IMG/VR virus record: IMGVR_UViG_3300022169_000035
Location: 1 to 22,905 of that record
Strand: one strand, 5' to 3'
DNA length: 22,905 bases
DNA from: a virus
Within the stretch, counting starts at the first letter, position 1, and every line of letters starts with the position of its first letter. A model generated the notes under the pieces. That model was given only the letters and a program-made list of their open reading frames with translations. It had not been told where the DNA came from and did no database searches. Below, piece by piece: positions 4,148-16,280 of this stretch. The position numbers were made by a program, and so were the translations under genes.

Positions 4148-4309
4148 ATGGACATGTTTGTGAAAAACCTTGCAGCATTTACTGATGCGTTGGGAGTAGA
4201 AAACGCCCCAACAATCGTTCACATGAGTATTATTCCGTGGCCTGATGACGCAACCAGAGACTCTTTCATTAAAGGTTTAACTGGTATTGACATGAGTAGG
4301 AATTATTAA
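4148..4309 (+). CDS. 53-residue hypothetical protein
   Basis: This short open frame lies exactly between two genes. Its ATG is the base after the upstream stop, and its TAA overlaps the next ATG as TAATG (4307-4311). AAAGG at 4131-4139 region precedes it as a possible ribosome-binding site. The product starts MDMFVKNLAAF, holds a HMSIIPWPDD segment near residues 25-34, and ends IDMSRNY. It has no membrane segment or Cys motif. The perfect packing with both neighbours is the main evidence that it is translated. The function is unknown; the neighbourhood suggests a virion or assembly factor. Confidence 0.65.
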   Translation: MDMFVKNLAAFTDALGVENAPTIVHMSIIPWPDDATRDSFIKGLTGIDMSRNY

Positions 4310-7300
4310 TGATTGGTACTGATAAAGAAAAAGCGCGTCAAAAACGTCTTGAAGAACAAAGAAAATTTGCTCAAGATATGGCTAACAACCGTGCCCAAAA
4401 ACAAGGCATAGCGAATCCTTTATACGCATCAAACCCGTTTGAACCATCAGCATACCTACCAAGTGTACCCAGCGACCCTGCTTTGTCACAACCATTACCT
4501 TCAGGTCGTTTCATTGACCCACTTATCCCTTCAGGTGCCGCTGTCGCGCGAGCAGCAGACATTGATGAATTTAGAAACAACCCTAAAGGATACGTTCAAG
4601 AAAATACTGCTAGCCTAAACAACGAACAGTCCCTTATTGATAAGGGCACAAGTATGATGGCTCGTATTTTTGATTACCGTGACGAAGCAGATTTATCTTT
4701 CTTTGGAATAAATCTTAGTGGTGTTGAATCAGTATTTGACGGTTTCTTCAAACACCTCGTTGGTGGATACGACTTGTTAAACATTGGACTTGGTGGATTA
4801 ATTTCTGCTGCACCCGGTGGTGTACGCACTTTGTCTTACGATGAACTTTCTGGCGGTTTAGATGTTGGGCAAGTTTTTAGTGGCGAGATGGAACCGGGTA
4901 TGGCTCCTTCACCCGGACAAATCGCTATCGCATCTGTGGCTGCGGAAGCAAAACGTATCCGTGAAGGTGGAGGACGTTTATCAGATGTTTTGTTAATGAA
5001 CCCTGCTACTGCACCGTTTATTCTTGCTGCGCTCGCTGCCGACACAAGCCCTTTGCAAAAAGACGGTTTCAACATTATGGACACGGAACAACGCGAAAAA
5101 GCGTTTTCTTCTGGGTTTGAACAATGGATGTCTGGCATTACTGATGCTGGTTTAATGTTCGTTGATCCTGCTATTGGTGCTGGTGTTGGTCTTAAAGTAA
5201 TGCGCCTTGGTTTGCTTGGTAAACCGGGTAGTGTTAAAACCGCTCAGGCTTTTAAGGCATTTGGTGATGACGCTGTTGAAGAAATGGGTACTGGTGGTAA
5301 TGCCCGTGTTGAAGAAATAATTAAAATGGGTGAAGCACGTAATCTTGCACAAGAAATGCCTGAAGGAATTATTAACCGTGTCACTTCTGATCCAAGTTTC
5401 CGCCCTCAACAACTAATTGATCCTGTTACGTTTAATGCAGTAGACCCTATTCCTGATTATAAAAATCCTTTGGCTAGGACACTTCATCAATGGCATACAG
5501 TTGATGATCAAGGTAGACGAACAATGTCTGTTGAAGAAATATCTCTTGATCCTAGTTTTAATGGTTTAACTGATAGAGCAACTATCGCTAGTCTTATTCA
5601 CAAGTCAGATAGCCCAGCGGTTTCTAACCTTATTCTTCAGTCGGCTATTGGTACTCCGGGTGCTTCACAAAAACTTGCTTTGCTTGATGCTGGTTATGCA
5701 GATATTATTTTTAGGTATCGTAGAGAAGAAGCAGCGTTTAAGTCACTTGGTACTGAACCTCAAAAGGTTAAAGAAGCGGGTGACGCTTATCTTAAAGAAA
5801 TTGAAAACACTAAACAAAACATTGCTAATCTTGAAGAGCAAATTCGTGGTATTGAAGGAATAGCAAAACCTACAACAAAAGATTTAACTTCTAATGGTTT
5901 ATTAACTCAACGGTTAAAAACATTGAAACAAAATTTAGATGAGTTAACTGAGTTAAATGATATTGCTTCTGGTAGGAAGCAAATAGATTATTTAGATCCT
6001 ACGAGTGCTTTCTACCGTCAAGATCGTGCTGACGCTATTGTCGAATCATTGTTTCGTTCTGGTGATGTTTATGATCAAATGTTGCACACTAATATGTTTG
6101 ATGCTGCTGCTACAAGTAGAACCTTTCTCCCTGCTTACAATAACGCTTACAGTCGTATGGTTATGGGTTCTCGTGAGCGTAGGCGTACAGCGAAGTATCA
6201 GTATTCTGCTGAAGGTACAAGTATTCTTCCAAAGAAAGTTACTACTAAAAATGAGTATGGTGAAATCATTCGTGAGAAAGATGGATGGTTTAGTAAATCA
6301 GCGTTTGAAGGAACAAGTAGATTACAAAGGAATGTTCGTGTTTGGCGTTGGATGGGTGCAGAAACACCTAATGGTTATATTGGTTTGAAGGGTACGGCTA
6401 CTGTTGGTTCTGAGCGTGAGTTTACTGCTGCTCTTGGTACAGAGTTGTTTACTGGAGAGTCTGTTAAAGTTTCTCGAAATATTGTAGATCCTAAAACTAA
6501 GCAAAATGTTTTTGAAACTATTGAAGATGGTGCTGGTAAAAAAACTTTACGTGTTAAAACTGAAGAAGTAGAAGTGGGTGGGCAAGCAGCAAGAGAAAAA
6601 TATTTTGGTGAGTTTTATGAAGCATTAAATAACCCTAATATAGATGCCAAGCAAGTTCTTGATGATATTGAAAGACGTATTGCAGATGATTACGCAGCGG
6701 CTTATGGTTTAGGTAAAGATGGTTTGGAAGAAATTTGGAATCAGGCTAATAAAAAACGTGCCGCCCAGTTGGAACTTATTTCCAAAAGAGGATATTTTGT
6801 TGATCCTGAAGATGGAACAATTCAAACTGTTGGATACCTTGATTCGCAACTTGCTAATGGTACGTACATGCAGAACTGGCATGAACTTGAAAAAATCCTT
6901 AAACAAACTTACGCCAAAGATAACGGTCAAACTCTTAAAGCAAAAATGAGTATGGCAGGTGAAGCAGCCGGTGGCGCATATGATTTGTTTAATAACTTTT
7001 GGCGACCAGCGACATTGATGCGTTTGTCGTATACGCAACGTAATATTTTTGAAGGTACTGTTCGTGCTATGGCTTATTCTGCAAGCCTTGCTCCTTTAAC
7101 GTGGCCTATTGCTGGTACTGCTTTTGGTATTCGTAATAAGATTGTTAAAACAACAGTAAGTAAGAGAAGTAAGAAAGCAACGGAAGCAATTGCTGATTCT
7201 GAATTTAGTCCTTATTTGCGTGAAGTAAATGATGCTGCTGTTGATGATTATTTTTGGCAAACAGCGGTTCCTGAGTTGGGTGCTACTGATATTGAAAAAA

Positions 7301-10300
7301 TGTATATTGTTACTCGTCCTGATAAGTCTCTTTCTAAAATGACTGAGGCTGATTATTTGGCTGGGGCGCAGTCTGCTTCTGATCGTTTAACGGCTGCTAG
7401 AGAAGCGGTGGCTGCAAACATTGACAAGTTTGATGCTGCTGTTGAAGGCACTGCTTTTGGGACATGGCGTAAAAAGAATCTTGCAGATTTAGATGAACAA
7501 ATAAAAAGCAATGATGCTTCTTTAGAGGCTCTTATCGAAACTGCTCAAGACATTATGGAAGAAGGGTTTGATAATGTTTTTGATGAGCGCACGTTGCAAA
7601 ATCTTTCGGAACTTATTGCTGCACAATCTAAAGTAGTTATGGATCGTGAAAATCTTGCTACTAGCCCTAGTAAAGCAATGTCTATGTATCGTACTCAGGC
7701 AGGGCGACAGAAGCGTATTGGTAGTGGTAGGTCACTTGGGCCTGATGGTGGATATTATGATGATGCGTTTACGGGTCCGTATGATCAGATTAACCGTGAT
7801 CTTATGTCGGCTGATGGAACTGTTACTCAATCGTTGTCGTTGAAGGCTGATATTTGGAACTCGTTTTTTAGAAAAGTAAGTATACGTCCTAATAGTTCTG
7901 TTAAATTTGAACCGGGCTTAGAAAAGCAATGGACTGCTGGGCTTGCTGACGCTATTGAAGAAGCATCTTCTTCTTGGATTATACGTTCTCTTGTTAAAAA
8001 TAAATGGAATCGTGAAGCGGTTCTTAAAGAAATGACTTCAACTGAAGAAGGTAATACTTTTCTTATTCGTTTGTTAAGCCAAATGGGTGAAGGTAATTTA
8101 GAGAGTGTTGCTAAAACTGTTCCTGATGCTTATGTTGGCGCTGCTCAAGCGGGAGAAAAGGTTGCTGTATCAGCACGTAAAGATGTTAAAAAGTTTGCTG
8201 AGATGGAGCGTTCAGCGGCAGGTGTTCAAAGGGTTACTGTTACTGATTTAGAACAGGCCCGTGTGTATCTTGATGAAGTTTCTTTGCAGGTTCGTGGGCA
8301 GATGCAGCATCGTTCTGAGTTTTTGTCTTTGCTTGAAACTAGGGCTAATGAAAAGTTGCGTGGTACTGCTACTGAAACAACTAAGATTACTCCTGAAATG
8401 GTTGGTGATGCGCTTAAGTTAATTCCTGAAGACCAGCGTGGAACTCTTGGATATATTCAAGGTTCTAATGTTGTCCAAATGGGTACAGATGGTGTTATGA
8501 ATATTTGGGCTAAGTTTACTAGCAAAATGTTTAGGGCTTTGGGTACTATTCCTGAAGACGCTATTACTCGTGGTGGTTTTTATAATACGCAGTATAAGGT
8601 TGCGCGAAATATTCTTATTGAACGTCATCTTGTTAATAGTGGGCAAGGCGATAAGTTGCTTAAGGGTAAGGCTCGTAGTGCTTCTAATGCTGAGCAGGGT
8701 GGGACTATTGCGCATGATTCGTTTAAGATTTCTGCTGCTGAATTGAATAGGATTCAAACTCAGGCTCATAGGCAGGCTTTGAAGGATACTCGTGAGTGGA
8801 TGTACACGATTGAGCGGCGTACTAATCTTGGTAAGTATGGGGAATGGATTTTCCCGTTTATTAGTGCTACTCAAAATAGTGCAACGGTGACGGGTAAGTT
8901 GTTGTTTAAGGAACCTTGGCTTGCTCCTATGATTGCTGATTTGTGGCGTATGCCTAGTCGTCTTGGTATTGAGGATGAGAATGGGAATCTTACTCTTCCT
9001 ATGCCTATGGATTGGGTGACTAAGAGTTTGCAGGATAATGTTGATTTTCCTGTTATTGGCGGTATTTTAAGTCCTGAAGATTTGTTAAATATTCCTAAAG
9101 ATGGTTTGAATGTGTGGATGCCTGAGACTGGGTTTGGTATTGTTCCTCGCCCAACTCCTTGGATTCAGGTTAGTGCTAGTGAGTTAATGAAGGCTAATGC
9201 TTTTCCTATTGAAACTCCTCAGGCTATTAAGTCTATTCTTGGTGAAGAGAATGGTAACGAGTTTTATGGTTTGTTTAAGGATTATATTTTTGGTGAAGGT
9301 CAGGGTGCTTCAACTAAATTGTTTTCTTGGGATAAGTTGATTCCTGCTTATGGTCAAAAGTTTTTGCAGTCTCGTGATGAGTTATCTGAACAGTATGGTT
9401 ACCAGTATGCGTTGCATATGCACACACAAAATATGCGGTGGAGGGCTGGTGAGCGTGATGATGCTCCTAATGCTGAAGAGATTAATAAGCGTGTAACTAA
9501 CTCGTTTTGGTTTAGTTTGCTGGGTAATCAGGGTGTTCCTACTCCTCTTACTCCGTTCCCTATTCTTACTCGTCCTAAAATTGAAACTCCTCAGGCTGCT
9601 TTGCAGGAAGTGTATAAGCAGTTGCAGGCTGCTAATCCTTTAACAGCGAACATGAATATGGATAATATGTTTGGTGATTGGGGTCTTGAGGCTTCTCTTA
9701 CTAAGGTTACTAAGAATGTTGGTGGGGCTAATCCTAATCCTCAGGCTGTTTCTGATAGTAAAACTTTGGAGCCTTTGATTCGGGAAGTTTCTTCTAATGT
9801 TGGGGAGAAGGATCTTAGTGTTCTTGGGATTCTTGTTAACAATCGTCGTGCTGCTGAAGATTACGATCAGGGTGCTTATAACTGGCAGAAGGTTGGTAAA
9901 ATTCCGGGTACTAATCGTGAGTGGCGTGAGGTGCAGTCTCCTCAGGAGGCTAATGCTGAGCGTCAGAAACTTGTTGGTTGGACTGTTTATCGTAAGGCTA
10001 TTGATCAGTTGGATGGGCAGTTGCGGTCGGCTGGTTTGAGTTCTTACGAGTTGAAGGCTGCTGCTCCGTATAAGGCTGCTAAGGATCGTTTGGTTGCTAA
10101 CATGATGTCTAATCCTGATTATGAGGGTTGGATTGTTGATTTTCAGGATCGTGGTGGTTCTAAAACTCAGTCGGCTGTGCGGGTTTTGGAGTCTGCTATT
10201 AATAATGATGATTTCCGTAATCTTCTTATTAATGGGCAAAAAGAAGGTTTGCTTGGGATAATGGATGAGTATGTGAGTATGCGCCGAAATCTTATTGCTG

Positions 10301-10506
10301 TTCTTGATCAGTCTGGGCACAGTATTGAGCATGATAGTAATTTGCAATGGAAAATTGGGTGGGATGCTATGCGTACTAAGTGGCGTAATCAAGATGAGCG
10401 GTGGGCTGAGATTGATAGCCTATACTTAAGCGGAGATAGTAATCCACAAGCACCGGGTAATATTTACTTGCAACAGTTGGCTAGTGAAGAAGGAGTTGGA
10501 CAATGA
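4309..10506 (+). CDS. Giant 2065-residue putative internal virion/ejection protein
   Basis: This is the largest gene by far, a quarter of the window. AGGAA (4298-4302) precedes the ATG. Residues 1-130 are polar and likely flexible. A Gly/Ala-rich, partly hydrophobic zone (about 140-310) includes GITDAGLMFVDPAIGAG. Coiled-coil-like helices lie near 480-555 and 1025-1125. A hydrophobic/aromatic zone with WRPATLMRLSYTQRN lies near 893-950, and YGEWIFPFISATQNS near 1509. The C-terminal 500 residues are helical and Trp-rich. Similar giant proteins sit between portal and capsid genes in short-tailed phages, where they are presumed to be packaged in the head and ejected with the DNA. I see no DxDGD-type polymerase motif, peptidase or lysozyme signature, so a virion RNA polymerase is not supported. 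Its stop overlaps the next start as ATGA. Confidence 0.6.
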   Translation: MIGTDKEKARQKRLEEQRKFAQDMANNRAQKQGIANPLYASNPFEPSAYLPSVPSDPALSQPLPSGRFIDPLIPSGAAVARAADIDEFRNNPKGYVQENTASLNNEQSLIDKGTSMMARIFDYRDEADLSFFGINLSGVESVFDGFFKHLVGGYDLLNIGLGGLISAAPGGVRTLSYDELSGGLDVGQVFSGEMEPGMAPSPGQIAIASVAAEAKRIREGGGRLSDVLLMNPATAPFILAALAADTSPLQKDGFNIMDTEQREKAFSSGFEQWMSGITDAGLMFVDPAIGAGVGLKVMRLGLLGKPGSVKTAQAFKAFGDDAVEEMGTGGNARVEEIIKMGEARNLAQEMPEGIINRVTSDPSFRPQQLIDPVTFNAVDPIPDYKNPLARTLHQWHTVDDQGRRTMSVEEISLDPSFNGLTDRATIASLIHKSDSPAVSNLILQSAIGTPGASQKLALLDAGYADIIFRYRREEAAFKSLGTEPQKVKEAGDAYLKEIENTKQNIANLEEQIRGIEGIAKPTTKDLTSNGLLTQRLKTLKQNLDELTELNDIASGRKQIDYLDPTSAFYRQDRADAIVESLFRSGDVYDQMLHTNMFDAAATSRTFLPAYNNAYSRMVMGSRERRRTAKYQYSAEGTSILPKKVTTKNEYGEIIREKDGWFSKSAFEGTSRLQRNVRVWRWMGAETPNGYIGLKGTATVGSEREFTAALGTELFTGESVKVSRNIVDPKTKQNVFETIEDGAGKKTLRVKTEEVEVGGQAAREKYFGEFYEALNNPNIDAKQVLDDIERRIADDYAAAYGLGKDGLEEIWNQANKKRAAQLELISKRGYFVDPEDGTIQTVGYLDSQLANGTYMQNWHELEKILKQTYAKDNGQTLKAKMSMAGEAAGGAYDLFNNFWRPATLMRLSYTQRNIFEGTVRAMAYSASLAPLTWPIAGTAFGIRNKIVKTTVSKRSKKATEAIADSEFSPYLREVNDAAVDDYFWQTAVPELGATDIEKMYIVTRPDKSLSKMTEADYLAGAQSASDRLTAAREAVAANIDKFDAAVEGTAFGTWRKKNLADLDEQIKSNDASLEALIETAQDIMEEGFDNVFDERTLQNLSELIAAQSKVVMDRENLATSPSKAMSMYRTQAGRQKRIGSGRSLGPDGGYYDDAFTGPYDQINRDLMSADGTVTQSLSLKADIWNSFFRKVSIRPNSSVKFEPGLEKQWTAGLADAIEEASSSWIIRSLVKNKWNREAVLKEMTSTEEGNTFLIRLLSQMGEGNLESVAKTVPDAYVGAAQAGEKVAVSARKDVKKFAEMERSAAGVQRVTVTDLEQARVYLDEVSLQVRGQMQHRSEFLSLLETRANEKLRGTATETTKITPEMVGDALKLIPEDQRGTLGYIQGSNVVQMGTDGVMNIWAKFTSKMFRALGTIPEDAITRGGFYNTQYKVARNILIERHLVNSGQGDKLLKGKARSASNAEQGGTIAHDSFKISAAELNRIQTQAHRQALKDTREWMYTIERRTNLGKYGEWIFPFISATQNSATVTGKLLFKEPWLAPMIADLWRMPSRLGIEDENGNLTLPMPMDWVTKSLQDNVDFPVIGGILSPEDLLNIPKDGLNVWMPETGFGIVPRPTPWIQVSASELMKANAFPIETPQAIKSILGEENGNEFYGLFKDYIFGEGQGASTKLFSWDKLIPAYGQKFLQSRDELSEQYGYQYALHMHTQNMRWRAGERDDAPNAEEINKRVTNSFWFSLLGNQGVPTPLTPFPILTRPKIETPQAALQEVYKQLQAANPLTANMNMDNMFGDWGLEASLTKVTKNVGGANPNPQAVSDSKTLEPLIREVSSNVGEKDLSVLGILVNNRRAAEDYDQGAYNWQKVGKIPGTNREWREVQSPQEANAERQKLVGWTVYRKAIDQLDGQLRSAGLSSYELKAAAPYKAAKDRLVANMMSNPDYEGWIVDFQDRGGSKTQSAVRVLESAINNDDFRNLLINGQKEGLLGIMDEYVSMRRNLIAVLDQSGHSIEHDSNLQWKIGWDAMRTKWRNQDERWAEIDSLYLSGDSNPQAPGNIYLQQLASEEGVGQ

Positions 10507-12378: not shown

Positions 12379-13422
12379 ATGGAATTAACTCAAGAGCAAG
12401 TAAACGCGGCTTATAATAATCCGTTTGCTAACGTAGATCCTAATGCTGCTTTTATTGGTAGCAATGTTAGACAAGACCCTTATTGGAAATTGTGGGAAGA
12501 AACGCAGGCTAAGAATGCTGCTGCGGCAAATAAACCTCCTAAAAAAGAGGTAGAAAAGGTTGCTGTTGATCCTAATCAGTTTTTTATAGATCAGGCTAAT
12601 TTAGCGGAGACAAGGCGTGTAAACAACGTTGTGGCTACTTTACGTGGCTTGATGGATACTTATGGTCTTTCTTCTCTCATGGGAAAGATTGAATCGTATG
12701 TAAAAAGTGGTCTTGATGGTGACGCTGTTATTGCTCAGATTCGAGACACTCAGGAGTATAAGGATCGTTTTCCTGCTATGGCTGCTTTGTCTGCGAAGAA
12801 GAGGGCTATTAGCGAGGCAGCGTATATTGATTTTGAGCGTAATGCTGCTGGATTGGAACGTGCTTATGGTTTGCCTGCTGGGATGCTTGGCACAGACACT
12901 ATCACTAATCTTATAACCAACGAAGTATCTGCACAAGAACTAGAGAACCGTGTCACTATGGCAGCAGCCGGAGCGTTCCAAGCAAGCCAAGAAGTACGCG
13001 ACACTTTCCGCGACTACTACGGTATTGAAAGTGGAGGTTTAACAGCATACTTCCTTGATCCTGAGAAAGCACTACCGTTACTTAATAAACAGTATGCGTC
13101 TGCTCAAATTGGTGCTGAAGCCCAAATGCAAGACTTCTCTATTGCTTCTGGTATGGCTGAAAGACTTAACGAGGCTGGTATTACTCAACAAGAGGCTCGT
13201 CAAGGTTTCGCTCAAACCGCTAGACAACGAGGTTTCATGCAAGGGCGTGGAGATGTTGTTTCACAGGAGCAATTAATTTCTGGAAACTTGATGAATGATC
13301 AGCAAAGCCAGAAGGCTATTGAGCGTGTTCAAAAGGGTCGTGCTGGTCAGTTCCAACAAGGTGGGGGATTTACTTCTAACACACAAGGTGTTGGTGGTTT
13401 AGGTTCCGCAGCGACACGCTAA
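12379..13422 (+). CDS. Putative internal virion protein, 347 residues, helical
   Basis: Function not recognised. It follows the previous stop by two bases (TAGTAATG). The N-terminal 60 residues are Asn/Pro/Lys-rich. From about residue 65 it is almost all helix, with RDTQEYKDRFPAM near 117-129, then ERAYGLPAGML near 158-170, and YFLDPEKALPLLNKQ near 224-240. The end is Gln/Gly-rich and probably disordered. Similar proteins occur beside giant virion proteins in other phages as far as I recall. Codons 174-214 (12898-13020) abruptly prefer A/C at the third base (30 of 41) against 4 of 40 just upstream. A role in the ejected core is inferred from position only. Confidence 0.6.
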   Translation: MELTQEQVNAAYNNPFANVDPNAAFIGSNVRQDPYWKLWEETQAKNAAAANKPPKKEVEKVAVDPNQFFIDQANLAETRRVNNVVATLRGLMDTYGLSSLMGKIESYVKSGLDGDAVIAQIRDTQEYKDRFPAMAALSAKKRAISEAAYIDFERNAAGLERAYGLPAGMLGTDTITNLITNEVSAQELENRVTMAAAGAFQASQEVRDTFRDYYGIESGGLTAYFLDPEKALPLLNKQYASAQIGAEAQMQDFSIASGMAERLNEAGITQQEARQGFAQTARQRGFMQGRGDVVSQEQLISGNLMNDQQSQKAIERVQKGRAGQFQQGGGFTSNTQGVGGLGSAATR

Positions 13423-13570
13423 CCCTAAAGCAACATAAATGCTTCTTTGTGTCTATACTATGAACAGTACCTTATATTGGCCCTTCTGAAAAGTGGGTGT
13501 GCTAGTAGTTAAGGTTTTTTCCATTGAGACGTTGGCCTGTCTTATATGAGTATTTTGGCTAAACCATATC

Positions 13571-13590
13571 TTGAGACAAACCTGTCTCAA
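13571..13590 (+). promoter_or_regulatory. Perfect 8-bp hairpin, second copy of duplicated dyad
   Basis: TTGAGACA and TGTCTCAA pair perfectly around an AACC loop. An imperfect relative with the same arms lies 47 bases upstream (13524-13542). The site could be an operator, or an RNA hairpin in the leader of the scaffold-capsid message. The A-rich tail on the + strand does not make it a + strand terminator. A TTG inside it opens the longer reading frame but is not a credible start. Confidence 0.5.
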
Positions 13591-13604
13591 AAACACACAA
13601 CCTC

Positions 13605-13627
13605 CGTATGAATCTCCCATTCATGCG
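13605..13627 (+). promoter_or_regulatory. Leader hairpin just before scaffold ribosome-binding site
   Basis: CGTATGAAT and ATTCATGCG form a 9-bp stem (one G-U pair) around a CTCCC loop. Six bases later comes the purine-rich site AAGGAAGGGAAG (13633-13644), and the ATG is at 13649. CCTCC at 13601-13605 and the pyrimidine loop could pair with the GGAAGGG of that site, so the structure may adjust translation or protect the 5' end of the message. Confidence 0.4.
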
Positions 13628-13648
13628 AGTTTAAGGAAGGGAAGAGCA

Positions 13649-14116
13649 ATGTCCGATTATGAAGAAGATTTTGATTCCAATGAAGTTGATGCTGTTGGTG
13701 ATAATGGAGACATTAAAAGTCTTCGTCGCGCTGCTAATGGTAAGAAACAATTGGAAAAGGAATTGGCTGATTTGAAACGTGAACTGGCTTTTGCTAAGGC
13801 TGGACTTCCAATGAATGACCCGAAGATGAATTATTTTGTTAAGGGTTATGAGGGGGATATGACAGCGGAGGCTATTCGTCAGGCTGCTTTAGAATCCGGT
13901 TTCTTAACATCACAGGGGCAGGAAGATGATTCTGTCATTGATAATGTTGCTGCTGCTCAACAACGAGTTATGTCTGCATCATCTGGAGTCGCGTATGAGG
14001 GACTTTCAGAGGAAGCGGCTCTTGCTCAACTTGAGTCAGCGATGGAAGAAGGCGGGATGGAAGCCATGTTGGATGTTGCTCGACAGTTCGGTATTCCAAC
14101 AAACATTGACCAGTAA
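13649..14116 (+). CDS. Capsid scaffolding protein
   Basis: The 155-residue product probably guides assembly of the capsid protein into a prohead and is then lost or removed. I chose ATG 13649 because AAGGAAGGG lies 7-15 bases before it and the upstream extension crosses two hairpins. The protein has an acidic N-terminus (SDYEEDFDSNEVDAVGDNGD), a Lys/Glu coiled coil (about 23-52, KKQLEKELADLKRELAFAKA), then a conserved-looking MNYFVKGYEGDMTAEAIRQA near 62-81. A helical Ala/Glu/Met-rich C-terminus follows. Length, acidity, coiled coil and place just before the capsid gene all fit scaffolds of short-tailed phages. No protease motif is visible. Confidence 0.8.
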   Translation: MSDYEEDFDSNEVDAVGDNGDIKSLRRAANGKKQLEKELADLKRELAFAKAGLPMNDPKMNYFVKGYEGDMTAEAIRQAALESGFLTSQGQEDDSVIDNVAAAQQRVMSASSGVAYEGLSEEAALAQLESAMEEGGMEAMLDVARQFGIPTNIDQ

Positions 14117-14127
14117 AGGAAGTTAAA

Positions 14128-15165
14128 ATGCCAGCAGGTACAGGTACACCCGGCTCGAACCAGAACGGTCCAGCCACCAGTCCGATGTATTCGCCCGGTG
14201 AGATTGTCACCGCAGCGGGTCCACTATCCATTAACGCTCCAGCACCTATCGTAGACATTACGCTTGGTAGCCAGTTCGTTACTAAGGCGTATGACCTTGC
14301 GGTCTATCCGTCACTTCGCCCTGAACTGATCTTCGATCAATTCGCTACAGTTCGGGCTTCTAACACCACGCACCGTGGCGGTTCAGTTCGTTTTTCATTC
14401 GTGGATGACATTTCTGAGCAAACCACTCCGTTGCTGGAAAACATTGATGTTGACTCCGTAACCTTGTCATCCAAGGCTCTTACGATTGCAATGCGCGAAT
14501 ATGGAACGGCTGTTACAAACACCGCTCTTATCCGTGGAACTTCAATGATCGCTATGGACCCACTTATCGCAGAGCGTGTTGGTTACAACGCCGGTCTTTC
14601 TGTTGATACGTTGGCTCGTGTTGCACTAGACGTAACATCTATTACTTATGATGACGCTACCACCGGAAGCGTTGGTTCTATTGGTGACGCTGCTGCTCCT
14701 CTTAGTGGCGATGCTCTTCGTGATGGTGTTGCTATTCTTCGGTCGAACAATGTTCGTCCGTTGCGTGGTGGCAACTATGTTGCTGTCATTAGCCCATATC
14801 AGGCTCAGCAGTTGATGTCTGATACTACCGATACCGGCTTCCGTTGGATGGTTGGTTATGCAGGTGGTATGGGTACTGCTGGTAACAGCGTGTTCATGGG
14901 TGAGGTTGGAACTTACGAAGGCGTTCGTCTCGTTGTTAACAACCACCTTACGAATCAAGGTCGCGGTTACCTGATGGGTGCTGAGGCTCTTGCTAAGGCG
15001 TACAGCACGGCTCCCGGTTTCGGTCCTCAGCCCGGAACTGTTGTTGCTCCTGTTGTTGATAAGTTGAAGCGTTTTGCTTCGGTTGGCTGGTACCACCTTG
15101 TTGGTTACTCAGTGTTCCGTTCAGAAGCACTTCTTCACATTAATACTCAAGCAACATTGGCTTAA
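14128..15165 (+). CDS. Major capsid protein (HK97 fold, N4 gp56-like)
   Basis: This is the main shell protein, 345 residues. AAAGGAAG (14115-14122) overlaps the scaffold stop and gives near-ideal spacing to the ATG. A flexible Gly/Pro/Thr N-terminus (1-40) precedes the core, with SQFVTKAYDLAVYPSLRPEL near 48-67. A GGSVRFSFVDDISEQTTPL stretch near 85-103 has the look of the E-loop region. The pattern GGNYVAVISPYQAQQLMSD near 210-230, then a G-x-VG-x-YEGVRLVVNN stretch near 260-275, matches the N4-gp56 group of HK97-fold capsids as I know it. Codon use is more balanced than in the neighbours, as often seen for highly made proteins. A strong hairpin follows the gene. Confidence 0.9.
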   Translation: MPAGTGTPGSNQNGPATSPMYSPGEIVTAAGPLSINAPAPIVDITLGSQFVTKAYDLAVYPSLRPELIFDQFATVRASNTTHRGGSVRFSFVDDISEQTTPLLENIDVDSVTLSSKALTIAMREYGTAVTNTALIRGTSMIAMDPLIAERVGYNAGLSVDTLARVALDVTSITYDDATTGSVGSIGDAAAPLSGDALRDGVAILRSNNVRPLRGGNYVAVISPYQAQQLMSDTTDTGFRWMVGYAGGMGTAGNSVFMGEVGTYEGVRLVVNNHLTNQGRGYLMGAEALAKAYSTAPGFGPQPGTVVAPVVDKLKRFASVGWYHLVGYSVFRSEALLHINTQATLA

Positions 15166-15237: not shown

Positions 15238-15747
15238 ATGGCTACAGCAGATAGTATGGCTCGCGCAGCAGCAGCGAAGAAAGCAGCAGCAGCAGCGAAG
15301 AAAGCAGCAGCGAGAAATAAAAGAATTGCAACAGCAAGAAAGACAAGTACCACAAGAACAAGTGCAGATCGCTTGTCGGGTGCTAAGCGTACTGGTGTTA
15401 CTGCTGGTAAACCGTCTGGGACTATGGCTCAACGCGCTAAGCAAAATGCTGGTGTTAAAGATGGAACTGTTCGTCTTGGTGCTAAGGGTAAGGCGTATAA
15501 CATGTATGACGCTAAGACCGCTACTTGGAAAAGAATTAAATCGGCTGGTGGTGTTAAGAAAGCCGCGCCTAAGAAACCGTTTACTCAGTATGGTGGCGTA
15601 AAGAAACCTTCTGCTGGAATGGTTGGTCCGGCGACGGTTGGTGTTAAAAATCCTAAGGATGGTTCTTTGTATCGTTTTGGTCCTCCTAACAATATTGAAA
15701 CGTATCGTTGGAACGGTAAAACTAAAAAGTTTGTAAAGACTAAGTAA
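15238..15747 (+). CDS. Lys/Ala-rich basic protein, histone H1-like N-terminus
   Basis: This is a 169-residue, strongly basic protein. The ATG at 15238 has AGGAAGG (15224-15230) before it. Residues 9-26 are Ala and Lys/Arg repeats (AAAAKKAAAAAKKAAAR), like the tail of histone H1, followed by a Thr/Arg/Ser stretch. The C-terminal half is less repetitive and may fold (GSLYRFGPPNNIETYRWNGK near 142-161). The basic tail suggests binding to DNA or to the acidic capsid inner face. It could be an internal DNA-condensing protein or a capsid-associated protein; the sequence alone does not decide. Its stop is directly followed by the next ATG. Confidence 0.6.
   Translation: MATADSMARAAAAKKAAAAAKKAAARNKRIATARKTSTTRTSADRLSGAKRTGVTAGKPSGTMAQRAKQNAGVKDGTVRLGAKGKAYNMYDAKTATWKRIKSAGGVKKAAPKKPFTQYGGVKKPSAGMVGPATVGVKNPKDGSLYRFGPPNNIETYRWNGKTKKFVKTK
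15265..15315 (+). repeat. Tandem GCA/GCG-AAG-AAA repeat coding Ala-Lys tract
   Basis: Runs of three or four GCA codons, then GCG-AAG-AAA, occur twice and a third shortened copy ends in GCG-AGA. The unit is 18-21 bases and in frame, so copy number can change by slippage without breaking the gene. Confidence 0.75.
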
Positions 15748-16017
15748 ATGGCTACTCCTGCGTGGCAGCGGAAAGCGGGTAAGAACCCTAAGGGGGGCTT
15801 GAACGCTAAAGGTCGTGCGTCTTATAACAAGGCTACTGGTGGCAAATTGAAACCTCCGGTGAAGAAGGCCGCTGCTAAGAAGTCACCTAAATCCGCTGCT
15901 CGTAGGAAGTCGTTTTGTGCCCGTATGGAGGGTATGAAGAAGAAGAATACTTCGGCTAAGACAGCGAAGAATCCTAATAGTCGTATTAATAAGTCGTTGA
16001 GAGCGTGGGATTGTTAA
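15748..16017 (+). CDS. Small basic conserved phage protein (SFCARM/NPNSRINKSL type)
   Basis: This 89-residue, very basic protein starts on the base after the previous stop. It carries features I recognise from a family widespread in podoviruses: an N-terminal TPAWQRKAGKNPKGGLNAKG, a Lys/Pro middle, then RRKSFCARMEGMKKK and NPNSRINKSLRAWDC to the very end. I believe a DUF (perhaps DUF6321) covers this family, but I cannot check the number. Its function is not known to me. The two Cys (one in SFCARM, one the last residue) are a conserved feature in my memory of the family. The place after the capsid gene suggests a capsid or DNA-bound role. Confidence 0.75.
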   Translation: MATPAWQRKAGKNPKGGLNAKGRASYNKATGGKLKPPVKKAAAKKSPKSAARRKSFCARMEGMKKKNTSAKTAKNPNSRINKSLRAWDC

Positions 16018-16280
16018 TGGCTTCTCTTGGTGAGACTTTTGTTACTAAGTCGTATGAGAAAGGTAAACCTAAAGTGAAGAAGAAGTCTGTGAAGATCACT
16101 GGGGTTAAGCACACGGTTAAGAAGGTTGGTGGTCGTGTTGTTGTTGATCATGCGGGTAACAAGGGTAAGAAGTGGGATAAAATTAATTTGACGAAGAAGG
16201 CTGGTGCTAAGACTGTTAAGCAGGGTGTTGCTGCTAGTCGTAAGTATCATTCAAGTAAGCCTCATGGAAGGGGTAAGTAG
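16017..16280 (+). CDS. Small Lys-rich protein, 87 residues
   Basis: The start ATG overlaps the previous TAA as TAATG (16015-16019); upstream in-frame starts would run into the neighbour. The product begins MASLGETFVTKSYEKGKPKV, with basic KKKSVKITGVKHTVKKVGGR at about 20-40 and a C-terminal KYHSSKPHGRGK. Alternating Val/Lys in the middle suggests short beta strands. It is very basic and has no Cys. The function is unknown. It belongs to the run of basic genes after the capsid protein and its TAG is followed directly by the next ATG. Confidence 0.65.
   Translation: MASLGETFVTKSYEKGKPKVKKKSVKITGVKHTVKKVGGRVVVDHAGNKGKKWDKINLTKKAGAKTVKQGVAASRKYHSSKPHGRGK

What the first reader, a model, noticed from the sequence alone, without database searches (positions are those of the whole stretch)
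13524..13590. Duplicated dyad TTGAGAC...CCTGTCT before the scaffold gene
Seen: TTGAGAC-N5-CCTGTCT at 13524-13542 and TTGAGAC-N3-CCTGTCT at 13571-13587, 47 bases apart; the second extends to a perfect 8-bp stem. Two spaced dyads in the only long gap suggest an operator pair or RNA processing hairpins for capsid gene control.
Basis: seen in the sequence. Interest (0 to 1): 0.5.

Follow-up and report, generated by a model that had tools for sequence, protein, structure and literature searches.

The report
Folded RNA leader before capsid genes
The two small mirror-image repeats are two hairpins of a larger folded RNA just ahead of the shell-building genes in a family of bacterial viruses; it may act as a built-in translation switch, while the likeness between the two repeats looks like chance.

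Summary
The dyads exist as stated, but their likeness is not conserved: in L004, the closest relative that differs, they change independently. They are two hairpins of a ~180-nt structured leader RNA between a conserved gene and the scaffold and major-capsid (N4-gp56 family) genes. Parts: a -10-like box; hairpin P1 (GNRA tetraloop, 3-nt bulge); hairpin P2 (dyad 1), whose UUGGCC loop pairs with downstream GGCUAA (pseudoknot); optional hairpin P3 (dyad 2, in 17 of 25 relatives compared); and hairpin P4 before the ribosome-binding site, whose CUCCC loop is complementary to the scaffold gene's own Shine-Dalgarno (SD). Strand-swap tests support P2 and P4 very strongly, P1 and the pseudoknot clearly. 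Rfam 15 has no match. The slot, and a last hairpin with a C-rich loop, recur in diverged relatives, including the 8 Streptomyces phages read, where the same gap also holds tRNA arrays. Best reading: a cis-acting leader that can hide the SD and so controls scaffold/capsid translation. The fold is well supported; SD pairing, regulation and any ligand are inferred. In the window itself the lowest-energy fold hides the SD with a P1 strand instead, so which partner is used is open.

The parts
13454..13459 (+). -10-like box TATACT; implied start of transcription about 13466
   Evidence: 19 nt before GG of P1b; in 16 of 17 relatives with any sigma-70-like hit the -10 ends 15-21 nt before that point; the window itself has no TT-type -35 and gave no hit. 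Start site inferred.
13469..13515 (+). P1 hairpin: ACCTTA/TAAGGT (P1a), TTGGC/GCTAG (P1b), 3-nt bulge TGT 13498-13500, CCTTCT/AGTGGG (P1c, one U-U), GAAA tetraloop 13488-13491
   Evidence: Folds so alone; strand swap P1a, P1b, P1c each 0/5000; not in the lowest-energy fold of the whole window leader, where CCCTTC pairs the SD
13522..13548 (+). P2 hairpin (dyad 1), loop GTTGGCCT 13531-13538
   Evidence: Strand swap z -11.4, 0/5000
13532..13537 (+). Pseudoknot 5' strand TTGGCC in the P2 loop
   Evidence: Strand swap 2/5000
13557..13562 (+). Pseudoknot 3' strand GGCTAA
   Evidence: co-changes read
13571..13590 (+). P3 hairpin (dyad 2), optional
   Evidence: Region folds at -7.4 kcal/mol or better in 17 of 25, not in 8
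13605..13627 (+). P4 hairpin CGTATGAAT/ATTCATGCG with loop CTCCC 13614-13618
   Evidence: Strand swap z -13.3, 0/5000; covariation 0.883 vs 0.297 in shuffles
13601..13603 (+). P4a 5' strand CCT (partner AGG 13634-13636)
   Evidence: Weak: 40/5000
13633..13644 (+). Ribosome-binding stretch AAGGAAGGGAAG; GGGA 13639-13642 complementary to P4 loop TCCC; GAAGGG 13636-13641 complementary to P1 strand CCCTTC
   Evidence: pairing inferred
13649..14116 (+). Scaffold gene (155 aa, pI 4.2)
   Evidence: PHROG 7813, unknown function; the gene in this place is named scaffolding protein in phage Dennebes
14128..15165 (+). Major capsid gene, N4-gp56 family
   Evidence: TIGR04387 72.9 bits, cut-off 60

Best explanation
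The gap encodes a conserved cis-acting structured leader RNA of the scaffold/capsid mRNA. Transcription probably starts at the base of P1. P1 (GNRA tetraloop, 3-nt bulge) and the P2 pseudoknot form a 5' platform; P4 sets an anti-Shine-Dalgarno loop (CUCCC) beside the scaffold gene's own ribosome-binding site. When the SD is paired (by the P4 loop as an H-type pseudoknot with a 9-bp first stem, 4-bp second stem and 11-nt linker; or, in the window, by the P1 strand CCCUUC) ribosomes are kept off; when a partner holds the platform, or P4a (CCU/AGG) forms, the SD is freed. This would set the timing or dose of scaffold and capsid protein. Shown by comparison: the helices, their place, one copy per record. 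Inferred: SD pairing, switching, effect on translation, the ligand. The scaffold is very acidic, so I do not favour it as the RNA binder; basic proteins after the capsid gene or host factors are candidates.
For: Relatives: 25 loci by capsid protein in IMG/VR, one MAG contig, L033 by the P1 pattern, L060 and L073 by the upstream protein. Strand-swap tests on 25 leaders (24 for P1b, P1c): P1a, P1b, P1c, P2, P4 each 0/5000, pseudoknot 2/5000, P4a 40/5000. P4 on the alignment: 91.1% of cells paired vs 61.5% shuffled and 28-47% slid. The P1 pattern, made from these sequences, has 18 hits in all of IMG/VR, all in contigs of this family, one per record in 18 of 18. Hairpin loop complementary to the gene's SD: 33 of 57 non-redundant scaffold leaders vs 14 of 200 control gene starts; looser rule 45 of 58 vs 58 of 379. 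In 34 non-A leaders the strands round the C-rich loop also match their own partner best, 0/5000.
Against: Loop and SD hardly vary inside class A, so their pairing has no covariation support (z 0.0). In the window, L004 and L013 the lowest-energy fold breaks P1 and pairs its strand with the SD; P1 forms in 21 and P4 in 23 of 25. P4a is weak. Single-sequence folding is unremarkable (z -1.76; P1 -1.82; P4 region -0.43). The strict loop-SD rule passes in only 2 of 11 class B, 1 of 5 D and 0 of 5 Streptomyces leaders, and the L033 pass is by another hairpin. In one search the count of pairs with a change on both sides (8) was reached by 36 of 500 shuffles. No expression data, no known ligand.
Confidence: 0.55

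Rival explanations
1. Long-range switch between P1 and SD: the P1 strand CCCUUC pairs GAAGGG of the ribosome-binding site when P1 is open; P4 is only a spacer or protein site.
For: Lowest-energy fold of the window leader and of the window, L004 and L013; 21 of 25 leaders have 4 or more complementary bases, 6 have 5 or more, 2 have 6.
Against: The P1 hairpin covaries within itself (P1c 0/5000) and forms in 21 of 25; the SD pairing is predicted in 3 of 25; a CCCU strand matches AGGG easily by chance.
Confidence: 0.15
2. Structured 5' end that stabilises the mRNA or boosts its expression without a switch: hairpins starting at the transcript end block decay.
For: The implied start lies near the base of P1; strong expression of capsid genes is expected (general knowledge).
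Against: Does not explain the covarying pseudoknot or a C-rich loop facing the SD in several leader classes.
Confidence: 0.2
3. Transcription attenuator or terminator.
For: P1 is followed by 5 or more T in the window, L004 and L016 (3 of 25); the Streptomyces hairpin is followed by TTT or TTTT.
Against: No + strand terminator was called; the one call, on the - strand at the P3 dyad, is at the chance rate (1 found, 0.8 expected). 22 of 25 lack the T run after P1.
Confidence: 0.06
4. Free RNA acting in trans or in packaging (as the phi29 pRNA, recalled).
For: Own promoter-like site; compact fold with a GNRA loop.
Against: P4 abuts the SD and the leader always precedes the scaffold gene in the relatives read; no Rfam match.
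Confidence: 0.03
5. Duplicated DNA operator for a repressor.
For: Both dyads match exactly in the window.
Against: Sequence not kept in relatives, pairing kept.
Confidence: 0.01

Closest known systems
T4/T2 gene 32 translational operator
   Same: Pseudoknot in a phage mRNA leader, 67 nt upstream of the start codon of the gene it controls (PMC3014915, passages).
   Different: No sequence likeness that I know of; here a further hairpin faces the SD, the gene is scaffold/capsid, and neither a binder nor autoregulation is shown.
Translational riboswitches and ribosomal-protein leaders that hide the SD (recalled)
   Same: Structured 5' domain plus an anti-SD stretch beside the SD.
   Different: No Rfam match, no ligand known, and the gene is a phage morphogenesis gene.
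Phage P22 scaffold autoregulation (recalled; not found by the searches)
   Same: Scaffold synthesis under post-transcriptional control.
   Different: I know of no RNA element there; the scaffold here is acidic, pI 4.2.
phi29 packaging RNA (recalled)
   Same: Phage structured RNA of similar length.
   Different: Not a capsid-operon leader.

Membership tests
Any Rfam 15 family | Score at or above the gathering cut-off | tested here: not met
   Window 0 hits; leader at E<=5 one chance hit on the other strand, 11.1 bits vs cut-off 35; 7 relatives 0; 20 further loci only 5 tRNA hits and one tmRNA hit in L093
Phage leader pseudoknot operator (gene 32 type) | Pseudoknot in the leader of the mRNA | tested here: met
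   P2 loop x downstream strand, 2/5000; by comparison only, no probing
Phage leader pseudoknot operator (gene 32 type) | Gene product binds its own leader and represses translation | not testable with these tools
   Scaffold pI 4.2 speaks against the scaffold as binder
SD-hiding translational switch | Anti-SD stretch complementary to the gene's own SD, near it | tested here: met
   Class A 21 of 25 under the strict rule, one of them (L033) by another hairpin
SD-hiding translational switch | Anti-SD and SD co-vary | tested here: inconclusive
   No variation to test inside class A (z 0.0); differences between classes were only read by eye
SD-hiding translational switch | Two exclusive folds | tested here: inconclusive
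   P4a 40/5000; P1 strand with SD in 3 of 25 predicted folds
DNA operator pair | Dyad sequence conserved in relatives | tested here: not met
tRNA or tmRNA gene | ARAGORN call | tested here: not met
   0 in the window; 0 in 24 related loci, 21 in FlowerPower
Intrinsic terminator | G+C-rich hairpin followed by a T run on the coding strand | tested here: not met
   None on the + strand of 13300-14200

The most novel reading that the evidence does not exclude
A family-wide phage RNA switch: a 5' domain made of a GNRA hairpin and a pseudoknot senses a phage or host factor and flips the ribosome-binding site between an open state (P4a formed) and a closed one (SD paired with the P4 loop), gating scaffold and capsid synthesis. 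The C-rich loop facing the SD has been kept through several diverged leader classes of phages with N4-type capsids, including cultured Streptomyces phages, while the stems were rewritten.
Probability: 0.3. Interest if true: 0.8.

Novelty: new variant of a known kind. Interest (0 to 1): 0.6.

Why it matters
[quoted passage not shown] A second, unrelated pseudoknot leader, placed before scaffold and capsid genes, would make it testable whether tailed phages set their scaffold and capsid supply by an RNA switch, and would add an RNA family for annotation. Eight cultured Streptomyces phages that I read carry an SD-facing hairpin in the same place, so part of it can be tested at the bench.

Tried and rejected
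Operator pair: disfavoured, the dyads are not conserved as a repeat. Known RNA family: no Rfam match. Hidden tRNA or tmRNA in these leaders: none. Terminator: no + strand call. DNA-level homology in cultured phages: none by distant blastn; only protein-level relatives. MAFFT alignments of the core (A3; A6) misplace P2, and A4 shifts the short P1 forms; I therefore used strand swaps and hand-placed blocks, and built no covariance model. An automatic choice of scaffold starts was wrong for many class B-E loci and was redone. Five distant loci (L037-L041, capsid 27-28%) had no match to the upstream or scaffold protein; I read only part of L038 and saw no such gap there.

Biases and dropped rows: the helices were first read on the same sequences that were then tested. 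In one search the P1 bulge and stem lengths were set by me, and each P4 row got the best of offsets 0 or 1 on either side in the observed set only. In one search the loop core was named per class by eye and the best site per leader taken. One search tested the first 200 of the 379 control genes. L021 was dropped as a near-copy of L012, L018 from P1b and P1c, L003 as identical to the window, L019 because its contig starts inside the leader; 7 loci end before the scaffold gene. L093 and L109 have an unclear (TTG) start: left out, counted with a wrong start (L093 as a miss), used with the TTG. Classes A-E and S are my labels. Of 27 Streptomyces records I fetched 8; the Bacteroides and Paenibacillus phages and other records listed there were not looked at. 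In print or not: seven searches of an open-access library, listings only apart from the passages named, showed no such element; only sought the phage groups.

Full report
What was claimed. The two dyads are at the stated places and are the only matches in the window; 0 of 100 shuffles had two. The second is a perfect 8-bp hairpin with a 4-nt loop. The gap 13423-13648 lies between a gene of PHROG 8424 (unknown function) and the scaffold gene, followed by the major capsid gene, a member of the N4-gp56 family (TIGR04387, 72.9 bits; PF13252). The gene in the scaffold's place is named scaffolding protein in one relative, Dennebes.

Relatives. The capsid protein finds 25 loci in IMG/VR (one, L003, is the same sequence) and one contig of a MAG named Actinomycetales bacterium. 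The P1 pattern adds L033 (capsid 45%). An alignment of the upstream protein gives the best 80 of 265 loci, among them L060 and L073 (capsid about 60%). Of 34 cultured or deposited phage records with a related capsid protein, all under 60% identity, 27 are Streptomyces phages; the upstream protein finds 29 Streptomyces records of 30. DNA of the leader finds nothing there.

The dyads are parts of a bigger fold. Side by side the gaps show, in order, a -10-like box; P1; P2 with a loop that can pair downstream; an optional P3; P4 against the SD. Dyad 1 is P2 and dyad 2 is P3. In L004 the stem of dyad 1 became TTAAGGC/GCCTTA with pairing kept, while dyad 2 changed in another way. P3 folds at -7.4 kcal/mol or better in 17 of 25 and not in 8 (fold column; its printed count of 13 of 25 uses a stricter rule). 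So the duplicated look is best taken as coincidence; I have no better account of why the match is so exact.

Tests of the fold. For each helix the duplex energy of a sequence's own strands was compared with strands swapped between sequences (25 leaders). P1a: self -7.74, cross -5.68 kcal/mol, z -4.5, 0/5000. P1b: z -3.3, 0/5000, and P1c: z -6.5, 0/5000 (24 rows each). P2: -9.67 vs -4.69, z -11.4, 0/5000. Pseudoknot: z -3.8, 2/5000. P4: -11.56 vs -4.89, z -13.3, 0/5000. P4a: z -2.5, 40/5000. P4 loop with SD: z 0.0, as both hardly vary. In hand-placed blocks P1b pairs in 117 of 120 cells and P1c in 135 of 138; the tetraloop is GNRA in 22 of 24, the bulge 3 nt in 23 of 24 as I set it. On the MAFFT alignment A5 (26 rows, 25 distinct) the P4 stem pairs in 91.1% of cells against 61.5% in shuffles and 28-47% when slid; covariation 0.883 against 0.297 and 0.10-0.20; the count of pairs with a two-sided change, 8, was reached by 36 of 500 shuffles. 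Pseudoknot changes can be read directly: UUGGCC/GGCUAA (window), UUGGUCC/GGACUAA (L006), UGACC/GGUCA (L015, L020), UGGCG/CGCUA (L023), GUGAC/GUCAU (L033). By eye no good partner is seen in L017 and L073, and only a short one in L014, L027, L042 and L060.

Results against. Folded singly, the leader is only mildly more stable than shuffles (z -1.76; P1 -1.82; P4 region -0.43). In the lowest-energy folds P1 forms in 21 of 25 and P4 in 23 of 25; in the window, L004 and L013 the P1 strand (CCCUUC in the window) pairs with the SD instead. This, seen when I checked the report, made me lower the confidence in the loop-SD version from 0.60 to 0.55 and add it as a rival; 21 of 25 leaders have 4 or more P1-strand bases complementary to the SD, but a CCCU/AGGG match is easy to get.

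Uniqueness. The pattern GGCCCYNCYGNRARGYRGGNGNGCY, made from these leaders, has 18 hits in all of IMG/VR: 17 contigs of the capsid search and L033. It is found once in each of 18 records searched whole. It misses the short P1 forms (L013, L014, L015, L020, L060, L073) and L018.

Promoter. Of 25 leaders 17 have some sigma-70-like hit; in 16 of these the -10 ends 15-21 nt before P1b. The window is one of the 8 without a hit, as it lacks a TT-type -35. Scores of 8 or more: 12 of 25 leaders, 26 of 1000 control windows. The transcript would then begin near the base of P1 (inferred).

The SD-facing hairpin beyond class A. In the same gap of diverged relatives a last hairpin with a C-rich loop recurs: CCUCC before an SD with GGAG (class C), CCCC before GGGAG (B, D), CCUCC before GGAGGGAG (E), UUCCCUAG before CUAGGAG in the 8 Streptomyces phages read. 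Strands round the loop match their own partner: 34 non-redundant non-A leaders, self -12.79, cross -7.76, z -12.4, 0/5000; B 0/5000 (12), C 0/5000 (10), Streptomyces 251/5000 (5). In Streptomyces phages an outer GCACG/CGUGC is GCAUG/CAUGC in Treat and Stella. Strict rule (loop with 4 or more bases complementary to a purine-only SD stretch containing GG): 33 of 57 leaders (A 21/25, B 2/11, C 7/9, D 1/5, E 1/1, S 0/5, other 1/1) against 14 of 200 control gene starts in the same loci, Fisher p 1e-15; the L033 pass is by another hairpin. Looser rule: 45 of 58 against 58 of 379. The rules were set after seeing the sequences and leaders are related, so p is a guide only. By eye, class B and D leaders also have a 5' hairpin whose loop can pair downstream (GACUGG with ACCAG; GACCGG with ACCGGU; GACCAG with GUCUGG).

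Mechanism. In the window the P4 stem is 9 bp, the loop CUCCC, and 11 nt lead from P4 to GGGA, which fits an H-type pseudoknot with a 4-bp second stem (geometry inferred). Forming P4a (CCU/AGG) would leave two nucleotides before GGGA and so exclude it; the two could be the states of a switch, the least supported step. The scaffold is acidic in the window and in the 5 relatives computed (pI 4.2-4.4), so I do not favour it as binder. Three very basic proteins follow the capsid gene (pI 10.7-11.5); one, DUF6321, has matches in 22 of 26 class-A and 6 of 23 class-B loci and none in the 38 others (low-complexity filter and composition correction were off, so weak matches may be spurious).

Known or new. 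Nearest in action is the T4 gene 32 leader pseudoknot (PMC3014915, passages). Seven searches of an open-access library showed no report of such a leader before phage scaffold genes (listings); passages were also seen of PMC3185693, PMC2864571 and PMC11536984, none of which described it. P22 scaffold autoregulation is recalled, not found. I file it as a new variant of a known kind: a phage leader RNA with a pseudoknot and an SD-facing anti-SD hairpin.

Noticed in passing
L043 1269-3340 (FlowerPower); L074 1948-2385; L103 4892-5043: The same gap before the scaffold gene holds tRNA genes in relatives: 21 in FlowerPower, 4 in L074, 2 in L103.
   Followed up: partly
L093 2705-2786: 82-nt Rfam tmRNA hit (51 bits) spanning both model ends without room for the middle, i.e. 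a tRNA-like domain without tag part, in the gap before the scaffold; a like stretch in L109 by eye.
   Followed up: no
L043 2540-2778: About 240 nt between tRNA-Glu and tRNA-Phe in FlowerPower with no annotated feature and no Rfam hit, rich in inverted repeats by eye.
   Followed up: no
window 15238-16277: Three very basic proteins (pI 11.3, 11.5, 10.7) in a row after the capsid gene; one is DUF6321.
   Followed up: partly
L017 about 5030-5110: Very stable hairpin (-36.6 kcal/mol) with an SD-complementary loop before a gene start just after the capsid gene.
   Followed up: no
window 13569-13592, - strand: On the - strand dyad 2 reads as a terminator-like hairpin; 1 found, 0.8 expected by chance in the stretch.
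   Followed up: no
window 4309-10506: A single ORF of 2065 codons in the structural module.
   Followed up: no
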